Origin: a virus
Length of the DNA stretch: 54,107 bases
Virus record (IMG/VR): IMGVR_UViG_3300005617_000340
Location: 1-54,107 of that record
Reading direction: 5' to 3' (one strand)
This document shows, one piece after another, positions 21,336-35,179 of this stretch. Under the pieces are notes generated by a model that searched no databases, had not been told where the DNA came from, and was given only the letters and a program-made list of their open reading frames with translations. Positions within the stretch are counted from its first letter, which is position 1; the number at the start of each line of letters is the position of its first letter. The translations under genes were made by a program, and so were the position numbers.

Positions 21336-21340
21336 AATAC

Positions 21341-21413: not shown

Positions 21414-21416
21414 AAT

Positions 21417-21488: not shown

Positions 21489-21496
21489 ATATTTTT

Positions 21497-21676
21497 ATGA
21501 AAAGACTCACCAAGTATCACATCCCTTGTTTACTGGCAGAGATCGACCGGTGGAAAATGAGGCGAGCCATTCAAATGGTGCCTTGGAAATACTTCTACGA
21601 AATCGCCAGAAACCAAGTTTCTCGCCCACGTAGCTCAGTTGGTGGAAGCACCGCCTTGGTAAGGCGGCGGTCGTGA
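21497..21676 (+). CDS. Possible small basic protein running into tRNA-Thr
   Basis: 59 codons, MKRLTKYHIPCLLAEIDRWK..., the last ~16 of them inside the tRNA-Thr gene. No ribosome site. The first 43 residues look protein-like and no other gene fills the gap. Weakly supported. Confidence 0.35.
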   Translation: MKRLTKYHIPCLLAEIDRWKMRRAIQMVPWKYFYEIARNQVSRPRSSVGGSTALVRRRS

Positions 21677-21697
21677 GTTCGAATCTCACCGTGGGCC
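21624..21697 (+). tRNA. tRNA-Thr(GGT)
   Basis: Acceptor GCCCACG/CGTGGGC, anticodon stem CCGCC/GGCGG with loop TTGGTAA, T loop TTCGAAT. Confidence 0.93.
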
Positions 21698-21701
21698 TTT
21701 C

Positions 21702-21774
21702 GGCAACGTAGCTCAGTTGGCAGAGCACACGTCTCATAAGCGTGCCGTCGCGAGTTCGAATCTCGCCGTTGCCA
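21702..21774 (+). tRNA. tRNA-Met(CAT) 2
   Basis: Acceptor GGCAACG/CGTTGCC, anticodon stem CACGT/GCGTG with loop CTCATAA, A73. Body differs from the first Met tRNA, so one may be a lysidine-type Ile tRNA for AUA. Confidence 0.9.
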
Positions 21775-21786
21775 TTCGAGGATGCT

Positions 21787-22032
21787 ATGAAAGAAGTTGA
21801 AAACAAACACGCAAAAGAGATATTCGAAAAACGCAAACAGATCGATCTTCTACACCAGGAAATAAACGACATTGCAAAATCTGTCCTGCCAGATTTTCAT
21901 TTCTTGGACTACAAAGTATCGACGTTCTGGTCTTGCGAAAAGAGTCCTATAGGCGTTTGTGTGTTTCATTTGAATCAGTGGGGACATACAACCGAATGCC
22001 GCTTTTGCGGAGATCCAGAGGAACGAAAATGA
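21787..22032 (+). CDS. Hypothetical protein with CxxC (81 aa)
   Basis: 81 residues from MKEVENKHAKEIFEKRKQID. Helical N-terminus, then FWSCEKSPIGVCVFHL and HTTECRFCGD, a four-Cys set that may bind zinc. The ATG follows tRNA-Met by 12 bases. Overlaps the next gene (ATGA). Confidence 0.68.
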   Translation: MKEVENKHAKEIFEKRKQIDLLHQEINDIAKSVLPDFHFLDYKVSTFWSCEKSPIGVCVFHLNQWGHTTECRFCGDPEERK

Positions 22033-22244
22033 AAAACGGAGCTAGCTTTCGAATCGTAGATCTGAATTCCAACAAGAAATGGGACGTCGAAGTAATTCAA
22101 GGTCGGCGCCAGCACCGCACAGAATACGGCGAGTCGATCGACAACCACTGTGACGGCGCAATCAGCGAGAGCGAATCACAAATCAGTGAAGAGACGCACT
22201 CGAACATTCGGTACGTAAGGAATCCATCTGATATTTCCCGGTAG
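22029..22244 (+). CDS. Hypothetical protein (71 aa), stop inside tRNA-Asn
   Basis: 71 residues from MKNGASFRIVDLNSNKKWDV. Polar, beta-like start then an acidic Ser/Glu-rich tail. The TAG stop (22242-22244) is bases 8-10 of tRNA-Asn. Confidence 0.65.
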   Translation: MKNGASFRIVDLNSNKKWDVEVIQGRRQHRTEYGESIDNHCDGAISESESQISEETHSNIRYVRNPSDISR

Positions 22245-22307
22245 CTCAGTTGGTAGAGCGCGCGGCTGTTAACCGCGATGTCGCAGGTTCGACCCCTGCC
22301 CGGGGAG
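22235..22307 (+). tRNA. tRNA-Asn(GTT) 1
   Basis: Acceptor TTCCCGG/CCGGGGA, anticodon stem CGCGG/CCGCG with loop CTGTTAA, T arm GCAGG-TTCGACC-CCTGC, G73. Contains the stop codon of the preceding gene. Confidence 0.92.
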
Positions 22308-22310
22308 CAT

Positions 22311-22383
22311 TGTAGGGTCGTTTAATTGGCAAGACGCTTGATTGTTAATCAAGTTATTGGGGGTTCGAGTCCCTCCCCTACAG
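22311..22383 (+). tRNA. tRNA-Asn(GTT) 2
   Basis: Acceptor TGTAGGG/CCCTACA, anticodon stem CTTGA/TCAAG with loop TTGTTAA, T loop TTCGAGT, G73. A second, clearly non-identical Asn tRNA. Confidence 0.92.
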
Positions 22384-22392
22384 CCATCTAGT

Positions 22393-22470
22393 GACACCGG
22401 AGTAATGGGTTGCCAACCCCATCGGTTTGATCAACCGTAGTTTCAATATGAGGCTTAAAACACCGGGGTC
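22393..22470 (+). ncRNA. Structured spacer RNA e
   Basis: Outer stem GACACCGG/CCGGGGTC (one mismatch) enclosing two hairpins: GGGTTG/CAACCC-like at 22407 and CGGTT-TGATC-AACCG at 22432. Multibranched 78-base RNA between tRNA-Asn and tRNA-Pro. Confidence 0.45.
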
Positions 22471-22479
22471 CAGTTCTAT

Positions 22480-22554
22480 CTGGAAGTACGATAGCCAGGT
22501 CAATCGGCATGTTTCGGGAACATGAAATCGTGGGTTCGAATCCCACCTTCCAGA
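22480..22554 (+). tRNA. tRNA-Pro(CGG)
   Basis: Acceptor CTGGAAG/CTTCCAG, anticodon stem CATGT/ACATG with loop TTCGGGA, T arm GTGGG-TTCGAAT-CCCAC, A73. Confidence 0.92.
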
Positions 22555-22564
22555 CTTTCTGTAT

Positions 22565-22637
22565 CGGAGTGTAGCCTAGAGGCTCAGGCACTCGGTTTGG
22601 GGCCGAGATCACGCAGGTTCGAATCCTGCCACTCCGA
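22565..22637 (+). tRNA. tRNA-Pro(TGG)
   Basis: Acceptor CGGAGTG/CACTCCG, anticodon stem CTCGG/CCGAG with loop TTTGGGG, A73. Confidence 0.92.
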
Positions 22638-22639
22638 CT

Positions 22640-22891
22640 ATGCCTAAAGAAGAAACAATCAATCTAGATCTCTACCAGTCCACAGCAATCAGACCAGGAG
22701 TCTATCGACACTACAAAGGCAATCACTATCGAGTGATTGGCGAAGTAGTCTTGGACGGACCTAGAACACCAATGGTTCTGTATATTCCTCTCTATGGAAA
22801 AGGTGAACCAACAGTGCGTGATAAAGCAGAGTTCTTGTCGTTGATTGGTGAAGCAGATCAAGTGAGACGTTTTGAATTTGTACACGATTGA
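22640..22891 (+). CDS. DUF1653 family protein
   Basis: 83 residues, MPKEETINLDLYQ..., with RPGVYRHYKGNHYRVIGEVV, VLYIPLYG and a closing RRFEFVHD as in DUF1653, a small beta protein of unknown role found in many bacteria and phages. Starts two bases after tRNA-Pro and stops right at the start of tRNA-Ala. Confidence 0.88.
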   Translation: MPKEETINLDLYQSTAIRPGVYRHYKGNHYRVIGEVVLDGPRTPMVLYIPLYGKGEPTVRDKAEFLSLIGEADQVRRFEFVHD

Positions 22892-22965
22892 GGGTCCGTA
22901 GCTCTAACTGGCAGAGCGCTGGTTTTGCACTCCAGAGGATGTGAGTTCGAATCTCACCGGATCCA
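22892..22965 (+). tRNA. tRNA-Ala(TGC)
   Basis: Acceptor GGGTCCG/CGGATCC, anticodon loop TTTGCAC (closing pair T-T), T arm GTGAG-TTCGAAT-CTCAC, A73. Confidence 0.9.
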
Positions 22966-22968
22966 TTT

Positions 22969-23041
22969 GGGGCCTTAATGTTAATTGGCAGCATGTCAGT
23001 GTCGCATACTGAATGTATGGGTTCAAATCCCATAGGTTCCA
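22969..23041 (+). tRNA. tRNA-Ala(CGC)
   Basis: Acceptor GGGGCCT/AGGTTCC, anticodon stem TCAGT/ACTGA with loop GTCGCAT, T loop TTCAAAT, A73. Divergent D arm. Confidence 0.82.
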
Positions 23042-23055
23042 TTCTTCTCTTGCTT

Positions 23056-23077
23056 TGTTGTATCGCCTATGATACAA
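23056..23077 (+). promoter_or_regulatory. Putative operator, perfect dyad (copy B)
   Basis: GTTGTATC and GATACAAC flank gcctat, an 8-bp perfect inverted repeat just before the gene at 23085. Shares TCGCCTATGA with the copy at 14327. Confidence 0.45.
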
Positions 23078-23084
23078 CCGCCCT

Positions 23085-23411
23085 ATGAACGATTTGATTT
23101 ACAAGGGCATTGTCTTTGGTGTGAAAGGCAAGAACAGAGCCGTAGCGCCCAACGATCTCGTAGAATTAGTCGTTGGGAATGTCCTAGCTGAAATCCCAGG
23201 AATACAAGTCAGACAAGTAAAGATTCATCCAGATGGAAGTCTGGAAGCTTGGGGAGAATTAGCTCGGAAGCACCCGAGAGGCAAACCATTTGTTGAATCT
23301 GCTCTTGAGGAAATACGACTGATTCTTGATGGCGCCGGCTTCATCGTATCGGCAATAGACGCCGACATAGATGATGTCGAGTTAGATAGAGGCCCAACAG
23401 CGTTGGATTAG
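23085..23411 (+). CDS. Hypothetical protein (108 aa)
   Basis: 108 residues, MNDLIYKGIVFGVKGKNRAV..., alternating beta and helix (LARKHPRGKPFVESALEEIRLIL, AIDADIDDVELD). No known motif. Preceded by the dyad at 23056 and followed four bases later by tRNA-Arg(CCT). Confidence 0.72.
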   Translation: MNDLIYKGIVFGVKGKNRAVAPNDLVELVVGNVLAEIPGIQVRQVKIHPDGSLEAWGELARKHPRGKPFVESALEEIRLILDGAGFIVSAIDADIDDVELDRGPTALD

Positions 23412-23414
23412 ATC

Positions 23415-23488
23415 GGGGGTGTAACTCAAATGGACAGAGTACAGGTTTCCTAAACCTGCTGTTGCGGGTTCGAGTCCCGCCATCCCCT
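23415..23488 (+). tRNA. tRNA-Arg(CCT)
   Basis: Acceptor GGGGGTG/CATCCCC, anticodon stem CAGGT/ACCTG with loop TTCCTAA, T loop TTCGAGT, U73. Confidence 0.92.
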
Positions 23489-23506
23489 TAACATTGAAGC
23501 CCGGGT

Positions 23507-23606
23507 GCTGGTCTAATCCTTTGAAAGTAGGATTCGGGAGGAACGATTAGCAGGGGCCGGCTAGCTGCTAGTCGCTGGCTAAGAAGGAACCCCTTAGCGG
23601 ACCAGC
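23507..23606 (+). ncRNA. Structured spacer RNA f
   Basis: 100 bases closed by GCTGGTC/GACCAGC with at least two inner hairpins: AATCCT/AGGATT (23515-23535) and GCTAAG/CTTAGC (around 23578-23597). Located between tRNA-Arg and a small gene. Unknown class. Confidence 0.5.
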
Positions 23607-23615
23607 TTGAACATT

Positions 23616-23753
23616 ATGGAAAAGCAAATCTGTGAAGTCTGTAACGAAGAGATCGGACCAAAAGAATTCCTATGCGGCTGTGAAAGATGCGCCCGCCTGT
23701 TTGGTCCGTGCTGCAATACAGAATCAGACAACTACTGTGTTGATTGCGCGTGA
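23616..23753 (+). CDS. Small zinc-finger-like protein (45 aa)
   Basis: MEKQICEVCNEEIGPKEFLC..., 45 residues with nine Cys in CxxC-like pairs (CEVC, CGCERC, CC, CVDC), a compact binuclear zinc finger. Starts 10 bases after structured RNA f. Confidence 0.62.
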   Translation: MEKQICEVCNEEIGPKEFLCGCERCARLFGPCCNTESDNYCVDCA

Positions 23754-23760
23754 GGACAGA

Positions 23761-23958
23761 ATGAAAGAATTCACAATAAGATTGAAAATCAACGATTTGA
23801 TTATTCCGATATCAGTCAAGGGAGAGTGCATTTCAATAGAAGAAGGCAATCTCTTGGTCATCGCGAATAACGAACTTATATGGGCGGCTGCTCCTGGTCA
23901 TTGGGCGACGTTTGCAGAAGAGTCGACTGCCCATCCAGCAGCCGAGATAGAAAGTTAA
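23761..23958 (+). CDS. Small hypothetical protein (65 aa)
   Basis: 65 residues from MKEFTIRLKINDLIIPISVK with GAGG upstream. Beta-rich (GECISIEEGNLLVIANNEL). The stop overlaps, tail to tail, the stop of the leftward gene at 23955. Confidence 0.65.
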   Translation: MKEFTIRLKINDLIIPISVKGECISIEEGNLLVIANNELIWAAAPGHWATFAEESTAHPAAEIES

Positions 23959-24113
23959 TCGGGAAGAACGGCCCCGGTGACAGGATCCCGGTTGAGATAG
24001 AAAGTTGCCTTGCCTTCCAGATCAATGAAAGCAATCCAACTCATATCTTCCGGTTCAATCCAGCCAGCCCAATGATCGTTCTGCGAATAGCGGCCGACTT
24101 TGATGTTCTGCAT
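23955..24113 (-). CDS. Small leftward protein (52 aa)
   Basis: MQNIKVGRYSQNDHWAGWIE..., 52 residues ending DPVTGAVLPD on the minus strand within an otherwise rightward block. The phrases WIEPEDMSWIAFID and TFYLNRD resemble small phage proteins I recall, which makes it credible despite a weak ribosome site. Confidence 0.6.
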   Translation of the reverse strand: MQNIKVGRYSQNDHWAGWIEPEDMSWIAFIDLEGKATFYLNRDPVTGAVLPD

Positions 24114-24127
24114 GGAGGTAGCCTATC

Positions 24128-24322
24128 ATGATCGCTCAAAAGGCAAAAGCAGGTTATCTCATTCTCTGTATCATAGGTGGCTGCTTGATGATTGGCATGA
24201 CTTTAATAGCCGCCTTTTTCAGGATCGAGAGTGTCCTTATCAAGATTATTCTTTCCGCAATTATAGTGATTGGTTGTGCTTGTTTCGCAATAGGATTTTA
24301 CAAACAAAATATGGTTGGGTAG
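24128..24322 (+). CDS. Two-helix membrane protein, stop inside tRNA-Phe
   Basis: 64 residues with two transmembrane helices (GYLILCIIGGCLMIGMTLIA and IILSAIIVIGCACFAIGF). Its TAG stop (24320-24322) is bases 8-10 of tRNA-Phe. Function unknown. Confidence 0.7.
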   Translation: MIAQKAKAGYLILCIIGGCLMIGMTLIAAFFRIESVLIKIILSAIIVIGCACFAIGFYKQNMVG

Positions 24323-24389
24323 CTCATTTTGGAAGAGCGCTGGTCTGAAAAACCAGAGGTGGCGAGTTCGAATCTCGCTCCAACCACCA
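24313..24389 (+). tRNA. tRNA-Phe(GAA), CCA encoded
   Basis: Acceptor GGTTGGG/TCCAACC, anticodon stem CTGGT/ACCAG with loop CTGAAAA, A73 followed by an encoded CCA. Overlaps the end of the preceding gene. Confidence 0.93.
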
Positions 24390-24408
24390 TTTCTAAACGG
24401 AGGCAACA

Positions 24409-25069
24409 ATGGAAACAGCAGTCATTGAAGTGCGAGCGGCAGAGGGCGGTGACGACGCCAAGCTGCTTGTAACCGACCAAATCAGAGCCTATATGTATGC
24501 CGCGCAGCGGAGGCATCTTTAGGGTTGAGCTCATAGACGAACGGCCAGGATTTGCAGCATTGACGCTCGAAGGCCCTAAAGCCTATGAGATATTCAAACA
24601 AGAAGCAGGCGGGCACCGATGGCAAAGAATTCCTCCAACTGAAAAACGTGGCAGAGTCCAGACGTCAACCGTCACAGTAGCGATCTTTGAAATCAAAGAT
24701 AGTAAGAATCCTGATTTAACGGACATCGAGATCCGAACGACCCGCGGTACTGGTCCAGGAGGGCAGCATAAGAACACAACAGAAAGTTGTGTGATTGCAA
24801 CCCACCGTCCAACCGGACTACAAGCCAGAGCAGATATGCGCTCTCAACATCAAAGCAAAGCGATGGCACTGAAGATCCTGACTGCCAAACTCTTAGACAG
24901 AGACAAGCAGATAACACAGGAGACGCAAGCAGCCGATCGACGAAAGCAGGTTGGAAGCGGAATGCGTGGTGATAAAATCAGGACATACAGCAGCCGGCAC
25001 AATCATGTGGTGGATCATCGCACAGGAAAGCGCTGGAAACTAAACGCCTGGATACGCGGAGAATGGTAA
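24409..25069 (+). CDS. Short RF1-like peptide chain release factor, made by +1 frameshift at CUU UAG
   Basis: Strong ribosome site (ACGGAGG) then METAVIEVRAAEGGDDAKLL, matching the EIRAGxGGDEA region of RF1/RF2. Frame 0 stops at UAG 24520-24522 right after CUU 24517-24519. The +1 frame continues RVELIDERPGFAALTL... to 25069, giving a 219-residue protein. It has GGHRWQRIPPTEKRGRVQTS (P-x-T as in RF1, not SPF as in RF2) and GPGGQHKNTTES (GGQ peptidyl-release motif), then a basic C-terminus. The N-terminal RF domain 1 is absent. The junction carries GGAGG, three bases, CUU, stop, as in bacterial prfB. Expected to release peptides at UAG/UAA and to sense its own activity at the UAG. Domain-1-less relatives (RF-H/ICT1 type) act in ribosome rescue, which is an alternative role. 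Confidence 0.9.
24508..24522 (+). promoter_or_regulatory. Programmed +1 frameshift site
   Basis: CGGAGG (internal Shine-Dalgarno) followed by CAU, then CUU and UAG. Spacing from the Shine-Dalgarno to the slippery CUU equals that in E. coli prfB, where the stop is UGA. Skipping the U of UAG puts ribosomes in the downstream frame. Confidence 0.85.
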
Positions 25070-25072
25070 TAT

Positions 25073-25144
25073 TGCGGGGTAGCTTAATGGTAGAGCGCCT
25101 GTCTTTGGAACAGGTCTATGAGAGTTCGACCCTCTCCCCCGTAG
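25073..25144 (+). tRNA. tRNA-Gln(TTG)
   Basis: Acceptor TGCGGGG/CCCCGTA, anticodon stem CCTGT/ACAGG with loop CTTTGGA, T arm GAGAG-TTCGACC-CTCTC, G73. Confidence 0.92.
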
Positions 25145-25148
25145 CTTT

Positions 25149-25222
25149 GGTCCTGTAGGTTAGATGGATAAACCGCAGCCCTGCGAAGGCTGAGAGCGCA
25201 GGTTCGAGTCCTGCCAGGATCA
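25149..25222 (+). tRNA. tRNA-Arg(GCG)
   Basis: Acceptor GGTCCTG/CAGGATC, anticodon stem CAGCC/GGCTG with loop CTGCGAA, A73. G34 Arg tRNA for CGC/CGU instead of the usual bacterial ACG. Confidence 0.9.
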
Positions 25223-25228
25223 TTTGAT

Positions 25229-25301
25229 GCCGGTGTAGCTCAGTTGGCAGAGCGCCAGTTTTGTAAATTGGATGTCGGGGGTTCGAAGCCCTCCACCGGC
25301 C
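25229..25301 (+). tRNA. tRNA-Thr(TGT)
   Basis: Acceptor GCCGGTG/CACCGGC, anticodon stem CCAGT/ATTGG with loop TTTGTAA, T loop TTCGAAG. Confidence 0.92.
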
Positions 25302-25322
25302 TATTTCTGAAGGGAGAATAAT

Positions 25323-25526
25323 ATGATCCTCGAAGGCGTCCTTTTAGCTAACGTCCTACACAGCATAATGTGGTATGACTACACTGAAAAGGGGTTCCAA
25401 TTTACGAAAGGAGGATCGAACATGCAAAAGCCCGAAGAGACCAATGAAGTTGTCTCTAACGAACTCGAACTCGAGATCGAAGAGATTGAAGAGATGATCG
25501 CTCCCGGCGCAATGTTGTCTGACTGA
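25323..25526 (+). CDS. Small acidic protein with two in-frame starts
   Basis: 67 residues from 25323 (AAGGGAG upstream). A second in-frame ATG at 25422 has a perfect AAAGGAGG site and would give 34 residues, MQKPEETNEVVSNELELEIE... The C-terminus (EEIEEMIAPGAMLSD) is strongly acidic and leader-peptide-like, but no modifying enzyme is nearby, so a RiPP call is not supported. Confidence 0.6.
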   Translation: MILEGVLLANVLHSIMWYDYTEKGFQFTKGGSNMQKPEETNEVVSNELELEIEEIEEMIAPGAMLSD

Positions 25527-25531
25527 AAGCC

Positions 25532-25596
25532 GTGCTGTAGATCGCCAGCGTGGTCCCTAATGATCCTAGTACGGCGCGGTTGTCGATCTACAGCAC
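25532..25596 (+). ncRNA. Structured spacer RNA g, 13-bp perfect stem
   Basis: GTGCTGTAGATCG pairs perfectly with CGATCTACAGCAC around a 39-base apical region (CCAGCGTGG ... CGGCGCGG). It has only a short TTTA after it, so a terminator is unlikely. Lies between a small gene and tRNA-Gly. Confidence 0.5.
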
Positions 25597-25602
25597 TTTA
25601 AT

Positions 25603-25674
25603 GCGGGTGAAGCTCAACGGTCGAGCACTAGCCTTCCAAGCTAGGTCTTGCGGGTTCGAATCCCGTCACCCGCT
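25603..25674 (+). tRNA. tRNA-Gly(TCC)
   Basis: Acceptor GCGGGTG/CACCCGC, anticodon stem CTAGC/GCTAG with loop CTTCCAA, T arm GCGGG-TTCGAAT-CCCGT, U73. Confidence 0.92.
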
Positions 25675-25683
25675 TACTTCTTT

Positions 25684-26082
25684 ATGACACCAAACGAACA
25701 ACTGCAAGCAATCTACGATTCCCTACCGACCATAGAGTGCCAACGAAAATGCCGCGCGGCATGTGGTCCCATATCAATGTCCAACATTGAATGGACTCGA
25801 CTTCGAGAAGCGACGTTCTTCCGCACCCTGGAAGGCGAGCGATTAAACAACACCGAGATCCTTTTAGTCTCGAACAGCGAAGGACGAGTCGATGGCGACA
25901 TTGCCTGTCCTCTCCTGACCATAGACGGCCGCTGTTCAGTCTATAAGCATCGACCCCTGATCTGTCGTCTATTCGGAGTCGTAAAGAAATTACAGTGTCC
26001 ATTCGGATGCGAGCCTTCAAGATGGCTCTCTGACGAAGAAGCATTCAAAATGCTCGAACAGATAAGGACATTGGAATTATGA
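25684..26082 (+). CDS. YkgJ-type (CxxCxxCC) metal-binding protein
   Basis: 132 residues from MTPNEQLQAIYDSLPTIECQ. N-terminal ECQRKCRAACG and the ACPLLTIDGRCSVYKHRPLI-CRLFG block with a closing CPFGC fit the YkgJ/UPF0153 zinc- or iron-chelating family. Family role is metal binding, mechanism unclear. Overlaps the next gene (ATGA). Confidence 0.85.
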   Translation: MTPNEQLQAIYDSLPTIECQRKCRAACGPISMSNIEWTRLREATFFRTLEGERLNNTEILLVSNSEGRVDGDIACPLLTIDGRCSVYKHRPLICRLFGVVKKLQCPFGCEPSRWLSDEEAFKMLEQIRTLEL

Positions 26083-26330
26083 AAGTAACAAGCAGCGAAA
26101 AAATATGCACGGAATGGCGAGTCGACTTGCGAGTCAATGGATTTTATAAAGAAATCCTCGATGGCAAAGCACTATTCAAGTGGTGCTGCGGACGCCGGAT
26201 GCGGAGAATTTCGGGATACCAACAAGTTAGGGGAAAGACTTATCATTTAGGATACGGCACTCCATTAGTTGTTGGTTGGTATTGCGAAGTTTGTGAAAGA
26301 AGAGAAGAGAATTCAGCAGAAATGCTATAA
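26079..26330 (+). CDS. Hypothetical protein with Cys pairs (83 aa)
   Basis: 83 residues, MKVTSSEKICTEWRVDLRVN..., with WCCGRRM and CEVCERR, a likely zinc ribbon. The stop abuts tRNA-Val. Confidence 0.68.
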   Translation: MKVTSSEKICTEWRVDLRVNGFYKEILDGKALFKWCCGRRMRRISGYQQVRGKTYHLGYGTPLVVGWYCEVCERREENSAEML

Positions 26331-26407
26331 GCCCGGTTAGCTCAACCAGGTAGAGCGCTGGTCCTACAAACCAGATGTTATAGGTTCAACTCCTATACCG
26401 GGTACCA
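26331..26407 (+). tRNA. tRNA-Val(TAC) with C33, CCA encoded
   Basis: Acceptor GCCCGGT/ACCGGGT, anticodon stem CTGGT/ACCAG with loop CCTACAA (C at position 33), T arm ATAGG-TTCAACT-CCTAT, A73 then encoded CCA. The only Val tRNA in the window. Confidence 0.85.
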
Positions 26408-26411
26408 TTTT

Positions 26412-26648
26412 ATGAATGAAACGCCGCTGAGTGACGAGCAGTTAAATCTCGTCTGTAAGATAGGACAAGGCGACAACTGTTGTAGCTATATCGCCTGCCT
26501 GCCACCGTTCGAATTCGTGTGCGCCAAACAAATGCCAGACATCTTCTTAGCCATAGAGCGACGGAGAGCGGAAGGAACAATGTCAGCTAAGGGCGACAAT
26601 TGCTCTGGACCCCCAAACTACATCGCGAGGATCGAAAATGCAGTGTGA
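26412..26648 (+). CDS. Hypothetical protein (78 aa)
   Basis: 78 residues, MNETPLSDEQLNLVCKIGQG..., five Cys, no membrane segment. Overlaps the next gene by 11 bases. No family recognised. Confidence 0.65.
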   Translation: MNETPLSDEQLNLVCKIGQGDNCCSYIACLPPFEFVCAKQMPDIFLAIERRRAEGTMSAKGDNCSGPPNYIARIENAV

Positions 26649-26928
26649 TCAATGTGAAGGAATCGCTGTCTGGGATGGTTGTTCAATGAGCACATTAATG
26701 GGTGCTATGTACAATCTCAAAACCGGACACAAACATGATGACAACTGTCTAACTAGAATCTATGTTTGCAACCAGAATTCGGAGCATCAGATAAAGGTCA
26801 GCATACGCCGACGATGCGAAACACCCGGTTGCGAATGGCGTGGAAAAGAAACTTGCTTTTGCCATCCCGGTACAAAACTTGATGATGGCCTGACTAAGGA
26901 AAGTCATGAAGGACACTCAAACGATTAA
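26638..26928 (+). CDS. Cys-rich hypothetical protein (96 aa)
   Basis: 96 residues, MQCDQCEGIAVWDGCSMS..., with CDQC, CETPGCEWRG and CFCH, probably two zinc sites. Overlaps both neighbours. Confidence 0.65.
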   Translation: MQCDQCEGIAVWDGCSMSTLMGAMYNLKTGHKHDDNCLTRIYVCNQNSEHQIKVSIRRRCETPGCEWRGKETCFCHPGTKLDDGLTKESHEGHSND

Positions 26929-27478
26929 GGCAGTACTCAACAAAGAGCAATTGAAGACAACAGAGTCGGTCGGGCGCCGACGAGTGGAATACGCGATCAA
27001 CCACGGTCTTAGAAAGACACGAGGCGGTCTCGATCCTCATGAACGCGGCGCCGCCGAACGACACATTCTCGGAGCGGCATCAGAATACGCAGTAGCGTGG
27101 AAGACCAATCTCTTCTGGCATGAACACATCGGCGACATCGATGCGCGTGATGTAGGCGATCTGATCGAAGTGAGATATGTAAATGATTGGGAACGACGTT
27201 TGATCTTGCATGAGGACAGCGCAGACGACGCACCATTTGTTCTCGTAGTCGCCGAACCGCCAGTCTTTACATTGCGTGGTTGGATAATGGCCTCGGATGG
27301 CAAGCGCAAAGACTGGTGGCAAGATCCAACGAGGAACGGACGTCACGCCTTCTTCGTACCAACGAACCAGTTGAGACCTATGGTAGAGATATTCTGGGTC
27401 ATTGAAGATTTCCGTACCGCTCGTCTCAACGCAACTGTGCCGCCGCGCGCCGCAGCCGGCACCGAATGGTTTAGCTGA
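26906..27478 (+). CDS. Conserved phage hypothetical protein (190 aa)
   Basis: 190 residues, MKDTQTIKAVLNKEQLKTTE... The order ERHILGAASEYAVAW, DVGDLIEVRYV, RRLILHEDSADDAPFVLVV, RGWIM and KDWWQDP...AFFVP matches a protein common in phages that I recall as having a nuclease-like alpha/beta fold. Catalysis not proven. Confidence 0.72.
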   Translation: MKDTQTIKAVLNKEQLKTTESVGRRRVEYAINHGLRKTRGGLDPHERGAAERHILGAASEYAVAWKTNLFWHEHIGDIDARDVGDLIEVRYVNDWERRLILHEDSADDAPFVLVVAEPPVFTLRGWIMASDGKRKDWWQDPTRNGRHAFFVPTNQLRPMVEIFWVIEDFRTARLNATVPPRAAAGTEWFS

Positions 27479-27648
27479 TGGGAACACTGAGCGAGCCTGT
27501 AAAGATCGAAGGCAAATGTCCGAAGTGCGGTGATGATTCTCAACATACGTATCAAATCTGGACTTCGTATGACGAAGCCTTCGAAGATGAAAAGCACAAG
27601 TGCGGAGCCTGCAACTTTATCTGGTGGATTGACGGCATAGATTCATGA
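27478..27648 (+). CDS. Small zinc-ribbon protein (56 aa)
   Basis: MGTLSEPVKIEGKCPKCGDD..., 56 residues with CPKCG and CGAC pairs. Start overlaps the previous TGA and its own TGA overlaps the HNH start, a coupled trio. Confidence 0.7.
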   Translation: MGTLSEPVKIEGKCPKCGDDSQHTYQIWTSYDEAFEDEKHKCGACNFIWWIDGIDS

Positions 27649-27978
27649 CCGAAGTTCGAAAAGGCAAGAGGCGAAAGATTCTCGAACGAGACGGACACCG
27701 ATGCTGGTATTGCGGCCGACCTTTGAAGAGAATTCTAGGCCATCATCCGCACAGATTAGATAAACTCACATTGGATCATCAGGAAGCGAAATGTAGGGGC
27801 GGTTCAAGCTCTATGACCAATCTCGTCGCCTCCTGTTTTGAATGCAACCAGGCCAAAGGACTTAGATGTCGAAGCCTACCGCGCAAAGCTGGAGATGGAC
27901 CTGCCAACCGGCGAGCGTGTTATATTCTGGGGTGAAAAGATGCGCGATGATCTGATCGCCGCACTCTGGTATGAATAG
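27645..27978 (+). CDS. HNH endonuclease with an apparent +1 frameshift
   Basis: Frame 0 gives MTEVRKGKRRKILERDGHR..., with CWYCG, LTLDHQEAKCRGGSSSMTNL and CFECNQAKG (complete HNH core), then an unlikely basic tail to a stop at 27935. Shifting +1 at CTT 27861-27863 continues DVEAYRAKLEMDLPTGERV-IFWGEKMRDDLIAALWYE, which looks like the natural end. AAAGGA stands directly before CTT. Either a mutation, a sequencing error or recoding. The catalytic core is complete in either case. Confidence 0.72.
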
Positions 27979-27986
27979 GAGAGGTC

Positions 27987-28019
27987 ATGCGAAAGTCACG
28001 ACTGAACGCTCCATGTTAG
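27987..28019 (+). CDS. Possible 10-residue leader peptide
   Basis: ATG with GGAGAGG three bases upstream encodes MRKSRLNAPC and stops at TAG 28017-28019, inside the left arm of the hairpin at 28009-28034. Translating ribosomes would open that hairpin. Confidence 0.4.
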   Translation: MRKSRLNAPC

Positions 28020-28034
28020 GAAACTAACATGGAG
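28009..28034 (+). promoter_or_regulatory. GAAA-tetraloop hairpin sequestering a ribosome site
   Basis: CTCCATGTTAG and CTAACATGGAG form a perfect 11-bp stem with a GAAA loop. The right arm contains GGAG of the Shine-Dalgarno for the gene at 28041, so translation is blocked when folded. A protein-binding or leader-coupled translational operator is likely. Confidence 0.7.
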
Positions 28035-28040
28035 GTTCTT

Positions 28041-28343
28041 ATGAGTCGATCGTACAGGAAGCGTCCTTTCTTTGGTGCGTGCAAAGACCAAAGACAGAGC
28101 GAAAAACGAGACAAACAGCTTGCTAATCGCGCGCTGCGACGAGCATTCAGAAACGCAATACATAGAGATCCGGAACTGAGTGTTCCACCATTGATCCGAG
28201 AAGTCAGCAACGTCGACAACTTCGTATCTGATGGTGGCAAAGGCTGGAAAGGATACAGAAAGTATCCAGTTTGGGATGAATTCAATCAGGAGTTCATGAA
28301 GTGGTATGGGCCTGAAGCCTACGCCAAAATGATGAGAAAGTAG
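28041..28343 (+). CDS. Basic hypothetical protein (100 aa)
   Basis: 100 residues from MSRSYRKRPFFGACKDQRQS, placed five bases after the sequestered GGAGG. Very basic N-terminus, then aromatic-rich (GKGWKGYRKYPVWDEF, FMKWYGPEAYAKMMRK). Possibly a nucleic-acid-binding protein that represses its own mRNA (inference from the hairpin). Stop abuts tRNA-Thr. Confidence 0.75.
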   Translation: MSRSYRKRPFFGACKDQRQSEKRDKQLANRALRRAFRNAIHRDPELSVPPLIREVSNVDNFVSDGGKGWKGYRKYPVWDEFNQEFMKWYGPEAYAKMMRK

Positions 28344-28416
28344 GCCGGTGTAGCTCAATTGGCAGAGCGCCTGTTTCGTAAATAGGAGGTTGTGGGTTCG
28401 AGTCCCACCATCGGCC
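28344..28416 (+). tRNA. tRNA-Thr(CGT)
   Basis: Acceptor GCCGGTG/CATCGGC, anticodon stem CCTGT/ATAGG with loop TTCGTAA, T arm GTGGG-TTCGAGT-CCCAC. Confidence 0.92.
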
Positions 28417-28427
28417 CCAGGATTGTT

Positions 28428-28982
28428 ATGAACGTACTAAGCCGACAAGTTCTGTTGCTCAATGCCTCATACGAAGCACTCGGCACAATCAAGACTCGCA
28501 GGGCTATTACTCTCATCTGGAAGGGTGCCGCAGAATTGGTTGTTCGCGATGAGGAAAAAATTGTTCATTCAGCGCATTCCGAATTCCCGGCGCCGAGTGT
28601 CATTCGCCTGACGTGTTATGTGGCAGACATAGCCGGCAAACAGCGACGTTCCAGCACGAAGAAGAACAGAATTCTCATGCGAGACAAGTATCGCTGCCAG
28701 TATTGCGGAGTAAAGGGTGGAAATTTCGACTTGACCGTCGACCACCTGCTTCCGAGATCCCGGGGCGGTACTACTTCTCCCGAGAATCTAGTAGCAGCCT
28801 GCTTTGCATGTAATCAGAGAAAGGGAGACCGAACTCCGGAAGAGGCCAGGATGCCGTTGTTGAAGAATCCTGCGGCCTTAACTTACGGGATGGATCGACA
28901 GATATTGGGACACGAATCTGAGGTTCGTCGCGAGTGGAGAAAGTATCTCTTCCTCGAGGATGCACAAGAGGGCGCGGCATAG
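28428..28982 (+). CDS. HNH endonuclease, bacterial type
   Basis: 184 residues from MNVLSRQVLLLNASYEALGT. An N-terminal RRAITLIWKGAAELV domain, then CQYCGVKGGNFDLTVDHLLP-RSRGG and CFACNQRKGDRTPEEA, the complete HNH core typical of the stand-alone bacterial/phage family. The TAG stop abuts structured RNA h. Confidence 0.9.
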   Translation: MNVLSRQVLLLNASYEALGTIKTRRAITLIWKGAAELVVRDEEKIVHSAHSEFPAPSVIRLTCYVADIAGKQRRSSTKKNRILMRDKYRCQYCGVKGGNFDLTVDHLLPRSRGGTTSPENLVAACFACNQRKGDRTPEEARMPLLKNPAALTYGMDRQILGHESEVRREWRKYLFLEDAQEGAA

Positions 28983-29095
28983 ATGCAAAGGCGCGACAGC
29001 ACTGCTAGCACCGACTGAACTTAGTAGCAGACGACCCTACATAGGGCAACGTTATAAGTGGAAGTATCAGTTCAGCCCGGTAAGCGCCTTTGCAT
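28983..29095 (+). ncRNA. Pseudoknotted structured RNA h
   Basis: Outer 12-bp perfect stem ATGCAAAGGCGC/GCGCCTTTGCAT. Inside, CTGAACT/AGTTCAG forms a second helix, CCCTA/TAGGG a hairpin, and CTGCTA can pair TAGCAG across the second helix (pseudoknot). TTTTG follows the outer stem. A compact, stable RNA of unknown class just upstream of the Ubl/Ro cluster promoter. Confidence 0.6.
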
Positions 29096-29122: not shown

Positions 29123-29151
29123 TTGACAGGCATAAAAAGATCGGTTACTAT
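29123..29151 (+). promoter_or_regulatory. Sigma70-type promoter of the Ubl/tRNA-mimic/Ro cluster
   Basis: TTGACA (29123-29128), 17-base spacer, TACTAT (29146-29151), ~30 bases before the ATG at 29181. The best promoter match in the right half of the tRNA region. Confidence 0.75.
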
Positions 29152-29180: not shown

Positions 29181-29408
29181 ATGAGCGCAGTATTAAACTA
29201 CGAGAGAGTTCACATTCGGTTCGAAGGTCGTTCTTTGGATCGCTCGGCGCAGGAGTTGGGAATTGTTGGATCTATGTCTGACGAACAGATTCGTCAGAGG
29301 ATTGCAAACGATCTCGACGTCAGCCTTGCAGCGTTGTCCAACTACGCAGTAGACCGCAACTCTGAGTCTGCTTCGTTGACGATCCGACCGGAAGCTGTAT
29401 ACGGCTAA
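29181..29408 (+). CDS. Putative ubiquitin-like small protein
   Basis: 75 residues, MSAVLNYERVHIRFEGRSLD... with AAGGAG upstream. Size, an initial beta hairpin, a helix around SMSDEQIRQRIANDLDV, a closing strand SASLTIRPEAVYG and a C-terminal glycine fit a ubiquitin-like fold, though sequence identity to ubiquitin is not evident. Lies in the same cluster as an E1/ThiF-like adenylyltransferase (34538). Most Ubls end in GG; this ends YG. Fold and conjugation are inferred. Confidence 0.55.
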   Translation: MSAVLNYERVHIRFEGRSLDRSAQELGIVGSMSDEQIRQRIANDLDVSLAALSNYAVDRNSESASLTIRPEAVYG

Positions 29409-29489: not shown

Positions 29490-29570
29490 ACCGCGCTACG
29501 GCTTGAGAGGCATACACACAACAATCTTGAAAATTGTGCAAGTGAATCCTGCTTCTCTGAAACGCGCGGT
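29490..29570 (+). ncRNA. tRNA-mimic RNA unit 1
   Basis: Terminal stem ACCGCGC/GCGCGGT, internal loop TACGGC opposite GAAA, second helix GAGAGGCA/TGCTTCTC, then ACAC-containing linker. The cap is a single anticodon-arm-like hairpin ACAAT-CTTGAAA-ATTGT (loop as in a UGA-anticodon Ser tRNA). Smallest of the five units. Confidence 0.72.
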
Positions 29571-29582: not shown

Positions 29583-29656
29583 GCGGCGGAGTGAAACGGA
29601 AATCATCATTCATGGCTCATAACCATGAGATAGTGGGTTCGACTCCCATCGCCGCA
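29583..29656 (+). tRNA. tRNA-Met(CAT) 3
   Basis: Acceptor GCGGCGG/TCGCCGC, D arm TGA/TCA, anticodon loop CTCATAA, T arm GTGGG-TTCGACT-CCCAT, A73. A complete, normally ordered tRNA standing between tRNA-mimic units 1 and 2. Confidence 0.85.
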
Positions 29657-29679: not shown

Positions 29680-29819
29680 GCCGCGCAATGGCAGGATAGG
29701 CTTACATACTAGCTCAACGGTAGAGCGCACCACTATGAATGGTGAGGTTGATGGTTCAAATCCATCGTCGGGGTAAAACTCGAAACTCAGCTTTTCCGAA
29801 ACGCGCGGCAAAATAATTG
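29680..29819 (+). ncRNA. tRNA-mimic RNA unit 2
   Basis: Terminal stem GCCGCGC/GCGCGGC, internal loop AATGGC opposite GAAA, second helix GGATAGGCT/AGCTTTTCC, then TACATAC. The cap is in normal tRNA order: D arm GCTCAACGGTAGAGC, anticodon arm CACCA-CTATGAA-TGGTG (ATG), T arm GATGG-TTCAAAT-CCATC. The acceptor strand does not pair with upstream sequence but folds TCGGG back on CTCGA, so no aminoacylatable end exists. Confidence 0.8.
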
Positions 29820-29871
29820 AATGTGATTGGCTGAGTGATTCTTTGTGGATCACAAAGTCTTTCCCGCACTA

Positions 29872-30002
29872 CGGCATAAGTGGCGTACATACAGCCAAAC
29901 AGAAAGTCACAGGTTCAAATCCTGTATCCCCTGCTTGAGGGGGATTAGCTCAGTGGTAGAGCGTCTGTGTATAATGTTGCAGCCTCTTAGAAACGTGCGG
30001 GA
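29872..30002 (+). ncRNA. tRNA-mimic RNA unit 3, permuted
   Basis: Terminal stem TCCCGCAC/GTGCGGGA (compensatory changes against the other units), TACGGC/GAAA loop, second helix TAAGTGGC/GCCTCTTA, GTACATAC. The cap is circularly permuted: anticodon-stem 3' strand ACAGA, T arm ACAGG-TTCAAAT-CCTGT, acceptor 3' strand ATCCCCT, short loop, acceptor 5' strand GGGGGAT, D arm GCTCAGTGGTAGAGC, then anticodon-stem 5' strand TCTGT, which pairs with ACAGA. The module is open at the anticodon and closed at the acceptor end. Confidence 0.85.
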
Positions 30003-30090: not shown

Positions 30091-30221
30091 TCCGCGCTAT
30101 GGCTGGTCGAGCGTACATACGGAGAAAGACGAGACTCATAATCTTGTTAACCTGGTTCGAATCCAGGGACCGCCACCACTTATGGCGGTCCAAACAAAAA
30201 CGCACTTCCGAAACGCGCGGA
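30091..30221 (+). ncRNA. tRNA-mimic RNA unit 4, permuted, no D arm
   Basis: Terminal stem TCCGCGC/GCGCGGA, TATGGC/GAAA loop, second helix with GCGT/ACGC, GTACATAC. Cap: anticodon arm ACGAGA-CTCATAA-TCTTGT (CAU), T arm CCTGG-TTCGAAT-CCAGG, acceptor 3' strand GACCGCC-A-CCA, CTTA, then acceptor 5' strand GGCGGTC. The encoded CCA is inside a loop. No D arm is visible. Confidence 0.82.
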
Positions 30222-30261
30222 TATGCTTTTAGTATTGAGACAAGAAAAGTCCGGAGGCCCG

Positions 30262-30408
30262 ATGGTGGCGAGAGTCGGCGGTCTTGAAAGTTTGATTCCT
30301 GCAATTCAAGAGGAATTGAATATAACGCACGGACTCTATGAAGCCCTAATAAGGCTGGATCGTACACGAGGCTCTGGATACGAGGGAGCTTATCGAGATG
30401 CTCTCTGA
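30262..30408 (+). CDS. Small hypothetical protein inside the RNA array (48 aa)
   Basis: 48 residues from MVARVGGLESLIPAIQEELN with GGAGG five bases before the ATG. Helical, ends YRDAL. Lies between mimic units 4 and 5 in the same direction. An earlier in-frame start at 30223 lacks a ribosome site. Confidence 0.5.
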   Translation: MVARVGGLESLIPAIQEELNITHGLYEALIRLDRTRGSGYEGAYRDAL

Positions 30409-30470
30409 GGCTTGAAAAGTTGCAAGCTGCGATCCAACAGAAGTTGGATGAAGCTCTTTGATTAAAGTTT

Positions 30471-30590
30471 TCCGCGCTACGGCCGGATTTGTGTACATAC
30501 AATATTCAGTGAGATTCTGAACCCCCTCCACCACTTATGGGGGGGAACCGTAAAGGTTACTGTAAAGACCACAAGTTCAAAACGCGCGGA
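30471..30590 (+). ncRNA. tRNA-mimic RNA unit 5, permuted and degenerate
   Basis: Terminal stem TCCGCGC/GCGCGGA, TACGGC loop, second helix GGATTTGTG/CACAAGTTC, GTACATAC. Cap: a T-arm-like hairpin TTCAG-TGAGATT-CTGAA, acceptor 3' strand ending CCCCCTCCA, CCACTTA loop identical to unit 4, acceptor 5' strand TGGGGGGG, and a small D-like hairpin AACC-GTAAA-GGTT. Anticodon arm not evident. Confidence 0.75.
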
Positions 30591-31526: not shown

Positions 31527-33119
<1,593 letters not shown>

Positions 33120-33197: not shown

Positions 33198-33413
33198 ATG
33201 AACATCATAGACGCTCTAAGATGGTCCAAAGAAAATGGCCGCAGTATTAGCCGCGAAGACGGAGTTGGTTGGATTCGATACGGAGATGATTTCGTATTCA
33301 AACTGACTGGTATTGATTTGCTGGCTACTGATTGGATACCAACCGCCGCCTTAGTAGAGGAACTTACAGAAGGAAAATACGAGCACGTAGAAACTTACGA
33401 TGTCGATTCATGA
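33198..33413 (+). CDS. Hypothetical protein (71 aa)
   Basis: 71 residues, MNIIDALRWSKENGRSISRE..., with WIRYGDDFVFKLTG and DWIPTAALVEEL. Small alpha/beta protein, coupled by overlap to the next gene. Unknown. Confidence 0.7.
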   Translation: MNIIDALRWSKENGRSISREDGVGWIRYGDDFVFKLTGIDLLATDWIPTAALVEELTEGKYEHVETYDVDS

Positions 33414-34239
33414 TCTGATAGATAATCTCGCAAAGGCCGAAGAAGATTTCCGCCAAACAACTTTTATGGCTCCGTGTCTGAAGGGAGGCAAGGTAGTTGT
33501 TCGCATTCACGGCCTTATAAGAAGCTTCAGACCAGCACCGGGAGATTTCGAGGGGTGGGGAATATTCAAAGCGAAGAAAGTGCAGGCGAGATTCATAGAA
33601 GAAGCCAGCTATCGAATGATCCAGACCTATGTAGGAAATCTCCAGCAATTGAAATGTCGTTTAATACACAAGCTCAAGGATAGGACGTGGCTCGCCTATC
33701 CACATAATGAATCAGATATGGAACAGAGGTTCTGGTCTCCAGCAGGACCGTTCAAGGTTCATCTTGTGGAGGAAGGCGCGCGGTTGGCCGGCATTCAGGC
33801 CGCGTTCGATGGAGCTCACTTCTGGTATGCAGGACCGGACGAAACAACGGATCCAAGTCTAAGCTCAAAGATGCGCCAGGCATTCGACGCCGGACAGGAA
33901 CCGCGGATACCGGGATTGACTCCAGAAATGAAGACCTGCTACATCCTAGCGGCTGTCGAGGCTAAAGAGTTCGCCAAGATGCGAGACGAAGATCGTCTGA
34001 AAGATGCTCTTTCGCTGGCTGGCGGCACTCTCAATGATTGGGCTGATCGAGGCAATGACTGGATGGTGACGTGGCAAACAAAGGACGGAGAAGTTCATCG
34101 ATCGGTTGTATCCAAAGATCTGACCGTCACCAGTGCTGGTATTTGCCTGAGCGGGCAAGATCGAAAATTCGATCTGCATTCTCTAGTCAAAGTCGTAGAA
34201 GATCGAAATAAAGGATGGGACTACGGATGGGACGATTAG
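33400..34239 (+). CDS. Hypothetical protein in the Ro60/E1 cluster (279 aa)
   Basis: 279 residues. The N-terminal ~170 residues form one domain: GGKVVVRIHGLIRSFRPAPG, FEGWGIFKAKKVQARFIEEA, FWSPAGPFKVHLVEEGARLA, DGAHFWYAG. I recall similar proteins beside ThiF-like enzymes and vWA proteins in other bacteria but cannot name a family. The C-terminal ~70 residues are beta-rich and may be a separate domain. One Cys (APCLKGG) near the N-terminus. Confidence 0.72.
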   Translation: MSIHDLIDNLAKAEEDFRQTTFMAPCLKGGKVVVRIHGLIRSFRPAPGDFEGWGIFKAKKVQARFIEEASYRMIQTYVGNLQQLKCRLIHKLKDRTWLAYPHNESDMEQRFWSPAGPFKVHLVEEGARLAGIQAAFDGAHFWYAGPDETTDPSLSSKMRQAFDAGQEPRIPGLTPEMKTCYILAAVEAKEFAKMRDEDRLKDALSLAGGTLNDWADRGNDWMVTWQTKDGEVHRSVVSKDLTVTSAGICLSGQDRKFDLHSLVKVVEDRNKGWDYGWDD

Positions 34240-34538
34240 ATTTACTCGAGGTTATGGAAACGGCGACTCTGGCGTATCCTGATGAATTCCTAAGTGAGTA
34301 TTACAACGAAGAGGGATTACCCAACCATGTTGCCGGTCTTCCACTTGGAGCAGGCGGCGATACTCTTGCGGAGTTTATCGTCAATGAGCTTTACGAGAAA
34401 TGGAATGAAACCGACGACGAGACTCCCGACCACGAACGAGTAGAACTTTGCGCTGAAGCCATTCGAACCGCCCAGGACGAACTGGATAAGGTCGCAGAAG
34501 CTTTGGAAGATTTTGCAAAGAGACTAAGGAGCAAATAA
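34227..34538 (+). CDS. Acidic helical hypothetical protein (103 aa)
   Basis: 103 residues from MGRLDLLEVMETATLAYPDE. Acidic, helical (HERVELCAEAIRTAQDELDK), LAEFIVNELYEKWNET in the middle. Overlaps the genes on both sides (its TAA overlaps the next ATG), so it is part of the same operon. Confidence 0.7.
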   Translation: MGRLDLLEVMETATLAYPDEFLSEYYNEEGLPNHVAGLPLGAGGDTLAEFIVNELYEKWNETDDETPDHERVELCAEAIRTAQDELDKVAEALEDFAKRLRSK

Positions 34539-35179
34539 TGGCAGACTCAACTCTTCACGAAGAATTATATAGATCAAAGGAGGCCATGAAGCGCTTACAG
34601 ACTTTCAAGGTGCTGGTATGCGGCGCCGGCGCCCTCGGTTCTAATATTCTTGAGTCTCTAGCTCGTCAGGGATTCACGAAGCTGTGCGTTGTAGACTTCG
34701 ATAGAGTCGAAGATCGTAATCTATCAACGCAGCCGTACGGCCGACAAAACATAGGACAGAAGAAAACATCAGCCATCGTGAACAAGATCTACAGGGATCT
34801 CGAAATCGACATCCTATGGCAAGCAGTTCACATGGATGCTGGTAACGCCGGGAAATTCATCAAGGGATGGGATTTGATTGTGGACGCGTTCGACAACGCA
34901 CCAAGCCGCAACATCGTGGCTATCAGAGCGAAGCAAGAGAACATTCCTTGTCTCCATGTAGGGATCGCCGAAGATGGAAATTACTCAGAAGGAGTCTGGA
35001 ATCAGGTCTACTCGATACCAGGTGAGATCGAGGATTCAGAGATCTGCAACTACCCTCTCGCCAGAAACCTAGTTTCCATCACTGTTGGTCTAGCATGCGA
35101 ATTGATCGTACAATTCGCAACAACTGGAGTTCAGAACACATTCACCTTTACATTCAAGGACTTAACGATTAACAGGTAA
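34538..35179 (+). CDS. ThiF/E1-like adenylyltransferase
   Basis: 213 residues. FKVLVCGAGALGSNILESLA is the nucleotide-binding glycine loop; CVVDFDRVEDRNLSTQPYG supplies the D-x-D and conserved Arg/Asn; QKKTSAIV gives the conserved Lys; LIVDAFDNAPSRN is the second acidic motif. A late SEICNYP Cys could be the thioester or metal Cys. There is no separate C-terminal domain, as in minimal bacterial E1s that adenylate the C-terminal Gly of ubiquitin-like or ThiS-like proteins. Candidate partner: the protein at 29181. Confidence 0.88.
   Translation: MADSTLHEELYRSKEAMKRLQTFKVLVCGAGALGSNILESLARQGFTKLCVVDFDRVEDRNLSTQPYGRQNIGQKKTSAIVNKIYRDLEIDILWQAVHMDAGNAGKFIKGWDLIVDAFDNAPSRNIVAIRAKQENIPCLHVGIAEDGNYSEGVWNQVYSIPGEIEDSEICNYPLARNLVSITVGLACELIVQFATTGVQNTFTFTFKDLTINR

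What the first reader, a model, noticed from the sequence alone, without database searches (positions are those of the whole stretch)
30091..30590. Units 4 and 5 share an internal ACCA-CTTA acceptor loop
Both caps have acceptor 3' strand, then CCACTTATGG, then acceptor 5' strand, although the acceptor sequences differ (GACCGCC versus CCCCCTC with compensating partners). A CCA end buried in a conserved loop suggests descent from permuted tRNA genes, or a loop recognised by a factor. Unit 4 lacks a D arm and unit 5 lacks an anticodon arm, which suggests progressive reduction.
Basis: seen in the sequence. Interest (0 to 1): 0.7.

Follow-up and report, generated by a model that had tools for sequence, protein, structure and literature searches.

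The report
Phage tRNA-mimic RNAs beside Ro60 gene
The two odd capped tRNA look-alikes belong to a row of five small RNAs, each hung on a stem that very likely binds the Ro60-type ring protein encoded next door, and similar rows sit beside the same gene in many other phages and in cyanobacteria, so they look like docking or decoy RNAs rather than decaying tRNA genes.

Summary
In detail: units 4 and 5 carry an acceptor helix closed by the identical loop ACCACTTAT, with different, compensated stems. The interpretation needs replacing. The five units are Y RNA-type RNAs. Each has the same basal stem: H1 CCGCGC/GCGCGG, a conserved internal loop, an 8-9 bp helix H2 that covaries between units, then UACAUAC. 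The array ends 1 kb before a gene whose product has the Ro60 fold (DALI-scale Z 20 to Xenopus Ro60; vWA_Ro60 Pfam hit above cut-off). The arm that is 'missing' from each unit is where this stem is grafted: D arm in unit 4, anticodon arm in units 3 and 5, acceptor end in unit 2. That is not progressive reduction. Searching with the stem motif alone recovered other phages; three of four contigs with real units also encode this Ro60. At least 68 bacterial loci, mostly cyanobacterial, carry such arrays. Across 63 capped units the cap loop is not conserved, but N+CCA is over-represented. Some cyanobacterial units mimic a 23S rRNA segment. Y RNAs are known; the varied attachment points, phage tRNAs with internal stems, rRNA mimics and a linked ubiquitin-like/E1/JAB cassette appear new. 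Function (tether, gate or decoy) is inferred.

The parts
29491..29569 (+). Unit 1: Ro-type stem (H1 CCGCGC/GCGCGG, H2 GAGAGGCA/UGCUUCUC) carrying only an anticodon-like hairpin ACAAU-CUUGAAA-AUUGU
29681..29808 (+). Unit 2: Ro-type stem replacing the outer acceptor of a normal-order tRNA body (D, anticodon, T arms); Rfam tRNA 48.8 bits, model 6-65
29864..30000 (+). Unit 3: Ro-type stem replacing the anticodon loop; T arm, capped acceptor (loop GCTTG), D arm = YrlA order; Rfam YrlA 32.2 bits (E 1.3e-4, below gathering 69)
30092..30220 (+). Unit 4: Ro-type stem replacing the D arm; anticodon arm (CAU), T arm, acceptor GACCGCC/GGCGGTC capped by ACCACTTAT
30175..30183 (+). Cap loop ACCACTTAT of unit 4
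30472..30589 (+). Unit 5: Ro-type stem (H2 9 of 9 pairs) replacing the anticodon arm; degenerate T arm, acceptor CCCCTCC/GGGGGGG capped by ACCACTTAT, D-like hairpin
30530..30538 (+). Cap loop ACCACTTAT of unit 5
29583..29656 (+). Ordinary tRNA-Met (CAU) lying between units 1 and 2
29123..29151 (+). Promoter-like TTGACA-17-TACTAT upstream of the array (consensus match only, not above shuffles)
29181..29408 (+). 75-aa protein, predicted beta-beta-alpha-beta-beta (ubiquitin-like) with conserved C-terminal RP.AV.G; conserved beside Ro60 and fused to it in L024
30640..30669 (+). Terminator-like hairpin and T tract closing the array
31608..33119 (+). Ro60-type protein (503 aa), helical ring part plus vWA domain
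33400..34239 (+). 279-aa protein conserved in the cassette
34538..35179 (+). E1-like ThiF protein of the cassette

Best explanation
The five units encode Y RNA-type small RNAs. The shared basal stem (H1, internal loop, H2, UACAUAC) is the binding site for the Ro60-type ring protein encoded 1 kb downstream; the rest of each RNA is an effector module that imitates a part of tRNA. Because the RNA's own ends lie at the stem, a tRNA body attached through its D arm, anticodon arm or variable loop must have its acceptor closed by a cap, which is why a CCA-like end is buried in units 4 and 5. The most likely mode of work is that the stem docks the RNA on Ro60, and the tRNA-like module gates the ring and brings in enzymes that recognise tRNA, directing Ro60 to damaged or misfolded tRNA and rRNA during infection. 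Shown here: the family, the covarying stem, the linkage to Ro60, the attachment sites, the Ro60 fold. Inferred: binding and the tether/gate function (about 0.45 for that function; decoy function about 0.3).
For: H2 covariation: window, fixed register 38/45 pairs, best of 120 permutations; 33 units in other phages, cognate -8.4 versus non-cognate -4.0 kcal/mol, 0/20000 permutations; 236 bacterial units in 68 loci, -9.35 versus -6.46, 0/5000. Linkage: a DNA search using only the phage stem motif found units in four contigs, three of which encode this Ro60 close downstream on the same strand; the three coding-region chance hits do not. The strict structural finder gave 161 hits in 147 kb upstream of bacterial Ro60 genes versus 8 in 138 kb downstream, and none downstream in 25 phage loci. 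Ro60 identity: the AF2 model matches Ro60 structures over about 427 residues, Z 20.4 to 1yvp, Z 19.4 to D. radiodurans Rsr 2nvo; PF25045 33.0 bits over cut-off 27.7. Unit 3 matches Rfam YrlA, E 1.3e-4.
Against: No transcript or binding data. The window's 3' internal-loop sequence is GAAAC, whereas nearly all relatives have ACUU. TROVE model PF05731 does not hit the protein and YrlA does not reach its gathering score. Several Ro60-bearing phage contigs show no unit by my strict finder, although some, such as L034 and L042, show divergent ones by eye. The tether/gate role rests on work in other bacteria.
Confidence: 0.85

Rival explanations
1. Ro60-stabilised decoys: the modules present tRNA arms (and, in cyanobacteria, a 23S rRNA segment) to soak up host anticodon nucleases or ribosome-targeting toxins. 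Same RNAs, different purpose.
For: Modules cover all parts of tRNA plus a 23S rRNA segment, and the phage also carries 39 tRNAs. A competitive-inhibitor role was proposed for Salmonella YrlA (PMC7790460).
Against: No nuclease is known to cut these RNAs; in Salmonella, YrlA fragments were not detected when tRNAs were cut (PMC7790460). Some units carry no tRNA-like module at all.
Confidence: 0.3
2. Permuted tRNA genes processed to functional tRNAs, as in some algae and archaea.
For: Permuted order, intact 7-bp acceptors, and N+CCA in some caps above chance.
Against: No window insert yields a tRNA when circularised; each lacks an arm; the outer stem is what is conserved; some units carry no tRNA part or an rRNA part.
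Confidence: 0.04
3. Decaying tRNA genes caught in recombination: pseudogenes or deletion products.
For: Units differ in completeness and lie next to a 39-tRNA cluster.
Against: The stem covaries and recurs in tens of genomes, with the same topologies; all five fold better than shuffles.
Confidence: 0.02

Closest known systems
YrlA-type bacterial Y RNAs (Rfam RF02553)
   Same: Basal Ro60-type stem formed by the RNA's ends; tRNA-like module with T arm, closed acceptor and D arm in place of the anticodon arm (unit 3, roughly unit 5); encoded next to a Ro60 gene.
   Different: Rfam score below gathering (32.2 versus 69). Other units attach the stem at the D arm or the acceptor end; relatives also use the variable loop or place the stem inside a tRNA with natural ends. 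Five units here, up to nine in some bacterial loci; some bacterial units mimic 23S rRNA.
Ro60/Rsr (TROVE) proteins, including Thermus phage phiLo Ro60 (PDB 9l5y)
   Same: Whole-chain fold: helical ring part plus vWA domain; metal-site-like residues DKSGS, GGTS, TDGGEN kept.
   Different: About 15% identity; not detected by PF05731; sits in a cassette with a ubiquitin-like protein, a ThiF E1-like protein and, in other members, JAB.
Circularly permuted tRNA genes of algae and archaea
   Same: Acceptor 3' part precedes the 5' part; acceptor ends joined by a short linker.
   Different: An arm is replaced by a conserved protein-binding-type stem; circularised inserts do not give complete tRNAs.

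Membership tests
Rfam YrlA (RF02553) | Covariance-model score at or above gathering (69 bits) | tested here: not met
   Unit 3 scores 32.2 bits (E 1.3e-4); the other units have no match. Hence described as Y RNA-type, not filed as YrlA.
Y RNA class (broad) | Basal stem formed by the RNA's ends, with conserved internal loop and covarying helices | tested here: met
Y RNA class (broad) | Encoded beside a Ro60 gene | tested here: met
   Ro60-type gene 31608-33119, 1 kb after unit 5; the same in relatives
Y RNA class (broad) | Binds Ro60 through the basal stem | not testable with these tools
   Needs a binding assay
YrlA | tRNA-like module in the order T arm, closed acceptor, D arm | tested here: inconclusive
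   Met by unit 3, approximately by unit 5; not by units 1, 2 and 4
Ro60 (TROVE) | Ro60 fold over the whole chain | tested here: met
   Z 20.4, rmsd 4.1 A, 427 residues to 1yvp; ten Ro60 rows rank first; model pLDDT 77.7
Ro60 (TROVE) | Pfam vWA_Ro60 PF25045 above curated cut-off | tested here: met
   33.0 bits versus 27.7
Ro60 (TROVE) | Pfam TROVE PF05731 match | tested here: not met
   No match in the record; called Ro60-type by fold, diverged beyond that model
Permuted tRNA gene | Un-permuted (circularised) sequence is a complete tRNA | tested here: not met
   ARAGORN finds none in the five window inserts
Permuted tRNA gene | Transcript processed to a mature aminoacylated tRNA | not testable with these tools
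   Needs RNA work

The most novel reading that the evidence does not exclude
These arrays are a Ro60-held library of mimics of the translation RNAs (tRNA seen from every arm, and a 23S rRNA segment), shared by phages and cyanobacteria and coupled to a ubiquitin-like/E1/JAB modification cassette. It would act as a sensor or decoy system against enzymes that attack tRNA and rRNA.
Probability: 0.3. Interest if true: 0.92.

Novelty: new variant of a known kind. Interest (0 to 1): 0.78.

Why it matters
What the tRNA-like part of Y RNAs is for remains unsettled in the papers I could read. Here nature offers dozens of versions in which the same docking stem is hung on different arms of tRNA, or on a copy of a 23S rRNA segment, next to one Ro60 gene. 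That makes the question testable: which arm must stay free, which enzyme is recruited, and whether the modules serve as tethers or decoys. It also ties Ro60 to a ubiquitin-like cassette, and it explains a class of apparently broken or permuted tRNA genes in phages and cyanobacteria that annotation programs miss.

Tried and rejected
Self-cleaving ribozyme or permuted-intron ends: considered because the ends are conserved; no Rfam match. Pattern scan of viral contigs with the window's own motif: 15 hits, none with a partner strand. Single-protein search of viral contigs with the window Ro60: no relatives; the alignment-based searches worked. Complementarity between a unit 3 stem strand and the unit 4 cap (I10): about what chance gives for 1.8 kb (my estimate). 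Infernal search for LSU rRNA in a 23S-like unit: nothing; pairwise alignment to a cyanobacterial 23S was needed (the first attempt used the wrong strand). The 23S likeness of the phage unit L001:8718 is marginal (31 versus shuffle maximum 30). Rfam YrlA at gathering score misses all bacterial arrays scanned. No Pfam or NCBIfam hit for the 75-aa protein, and its fold matches are not significant (best E 0.09; the top hits are mostly beta-grasp folds). PADLOC: only generic E1 and HNH hits. A free-register H2 energy test on the window alone was weak (about 1700 of 20000 permutations); the fixed-register test was decisive. The automatic cap and arm classifier mislabels some units (a T arm read as a cap), so its class counts are rough.

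Full report
What is in the sequence. The finding covers the last two of five units at 29491-29569, 29681-29808, 29864-30000, 30092-30220 and 30472-30589. Every unit starts with CCGCGC(UAC)GGC...UACAUAC (with small changes) and ends with GAAACGCGCGG. A scan of the whole window for this architecture finds only these units on the + strand (unit 4 falls just under the threshold) and one chance hit on the other strand. Each folds better than dinucleotide shuffles, z -2.9 to -3.8. Two helices frame every unit: H1, CCGCGC with GCGCGG (or CCGCAC with GUGCGG), and H2, nine positions whose sequence differs in each unit. In one fixed register H2 forms 8, 8, 7, 6 and 9 of 9 pairs in units 1 to 5; the true assignment is the best of all 120 possible. 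H2 is therefore a real, covarying helix.

What hangs on the stem. Unit 1 has only a 5-bp, 7-loop hairpin like an anticodon arm. Unit 2 has D, anticodon and T arms in normal order, with the stem in place of the outer acceptor (Rfam tRNA model positions 6-65). Unit 3 has T arm, acceptor closed by GCTTG, and D arm, with the stem continuing the anticodon helix UCUGU/ACAGA. Unit 4 has anticodon arm (CAU), T arm and capped acceptor, with the stem where the D arm would be. Unit 5 has a T-like arm, capped acceptor and a D-like hairpin, with the stem in the anticodon position. The arm called 'lacking' is thus the attachment site.

What the stem is. Unit 3 matches Rfam YrlA, the bacterial Y RNA, at 32.2 bits, E 1.3e-4, below the family's gathering score of 69. 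The gene starting 1 kb after unit 5 (31608-33119) encodes a protein with the Pfam vWA_Ro60 domain above its cut-off. Its AlphaFold2 model (pLDDT 77.7) matches Ro60 structures along the whole chain: Z 20.4, 427 residues, 4.1 A to Xenopus Ro60 1yvp; Z 19.4 to Deinococcus Rsr 2nvo; Z 16.9 to the Ro60 of Thermus phage phiLo. The TROVE Pfam model itself does not hit.

Independent test of the link. The only relative of the protein in the phage collection is in a 595-kb uncultured phage (L001, 42% identity in the alignment). Upstream of it lie more than a dozen units with the motif GTCC CCWAC-(H2)-UACAAAC and (H2)-ACUUGGAC. A search of IMG/VR with that RNA motif alone gave seven contigs. Four contain real units (L018, L020, L022, L023), and three of these encode the same Ro60 close downstream on the same strand; the fourth is a 58-kb record without a match. 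The three chance hits in coding sequence have no Ro60.

Wider family. A profile search found 30 distinct phage loci and over 100 bacterial matches (80 kept), mostly cyanobacteria, also Acidobacteria, Chloroflexi, Myxococcota and others. In bacteria the 5' half-motif occurs 262 times on the Ro60 strand and once on the reverse strand; 236 have an H1 partner, in 68 loci, and their H2 partners are cognate (-9.35 versus -6.46 kcal/mol, 0 of 5000 permutations). A strict structural finder gives 161 units in 147 kb upstream versus 8 in 138 kb downstream. Several of these records are chromosomes (for example Nostoc carneum NIES-2107), so this is not only a phage feature.

Topologies. Across 38 units parsed one by one (33 from other phages, 5 from the window) the stem is attached at the acceptor end, in the D loop of a tRNA with natural ends, at the anticodon, or at the variable loop, or carries no tRNA part. 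The natural-end type, with the stem as an internal hairpin, is 22 of 53 phage units and 1 of 200 bacterial units (Fisher p 4e-16; units within an array are not independent, so read p as descriptive).

The cap. In 63 capped units found by script a full acceptor follows the T arm directly. The loops are varied. N+CCA follows the acceptor exactly in six (L038, L041, L062, L110, L132, window unit 4), 0.75 expected, 0 of 2000 shuffles. Unit 5 also has it but was not counted because its T loop is degenerate. ACCACTTAT occurs only in window units 4 and 5. So the cap is a joined tRNA 3'-5' end, sometimes with its CCA; the identity between units 4 and 5 is best read as local copying or common origin.

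rRNA mimicry. Ten units in cyanobacteria contain about 22-33 nt aligned to 23S rRNA around AACUAUAACGGUCCUAAGGUAGCGAAAUUC (scores 35-51, shuffles at most 33). This is unexpected if the modules were only broken tRNAs.

Cassette. A 75-aa protein (window 29181-29408), predicted beta-beta-alpha-beta-beta with an invariant C-terminal glycine, is found in 59 of 80 bacterial and at least 8 of 29 phage Ro60 loci. In L024 a homologous stretch is fused to the N terminus of Ro60 (by inspection of the alignment). A ThiF E1-like protein, a 279-297 aa protein and often JAB complete the cassette. The ubiquitin-like reading of the fold is not statistically secured.

How it probably works. In Salmonella and Deinococcus, Y RNA docks on the Ro60/Rsr ring by its basal stem while the tRNA-like end contacts other proteins such as PNPase (reviewed in PMC8394870); a competitive-inhibitor role against an anticodon nuclease has been proposed (PMC7790460), and a few jumbo phages are known to carry TROVE proteins (PMC7824862). 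By analogy the array supplies Ro60 with several interchangeable modules. Whether they recruit, gate or decoy is not shown here.

What is known and what is not. From my own knowledge, Chen and co-workers (RNA 2014) reported tRNA-like Y RNAs near Ro60 in many bacteria and phages; that paper and the later reviews are not in the library, so part of what I call new may be described there. In the papers searched I found no report of multi-unit arrays with different attachment points, internal-stem phage tRNAs, 23S-like modules, or the ubiquitin-like linkage.

Noticed in passing
L060, L066, L072, L073, L076, L080, L089, L091, L093, L109 (for example L072:788): Ro-type units in cyanobacteria whose insert carries a 22-33 nt near-copy of 23S rRNA (AACUAUAACGGUCCUAAGGUAGCGAA) instead of a tRNA module.
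   Followed up: partly
L063:5721, L067:5776, L068:5746, L073:5776, L074:5214, L086:5819, L093:3068, L126:5789 and others: A third recurring module in cyanobacterial arrays...GGTGCGTAC..GTACGCTGCAAGCCTGA....TAGCAGGCA, often the unit nearest Ro60; what it mimics is unknown.
   Followed up: no
window 29181-29408 and 34538-35179; L024:7770-9743; L001:16703-17179 and 17975-18628: Conserved ubiquitin-like/E1/JAB cassette around Ro60; a homologue of the 75-aa protein is fused to the N terminus of Ro60 in L024.
   Followed up: partly
window 14711-28419 and L110, L113, L123: 38 ARAGORN tRNAs precede the array in the window (39 with the tRNA-Met inside it); acidobacterial and related contigs L110, L113 and L123 have 21-39 tRNAs plus Ro60 arrays and an HNH protein about 60% identical to window 28392-28982.
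   Followed up: no
window 28983-29095: Perfect 12-bp inverted repeat ATGCAAAGGCGC/GCGCCTTTGCAT enclosing 89 nt right after an HNH gene; possibly another structured RNA.
   Followed up: no
PMC6424891 and PMC11423583: Cyanobacterial TROVE genes are reported strongly induced by erythromycin or in coculture (there with RtcB); whether they are this family was not checked.
   Followed up: no
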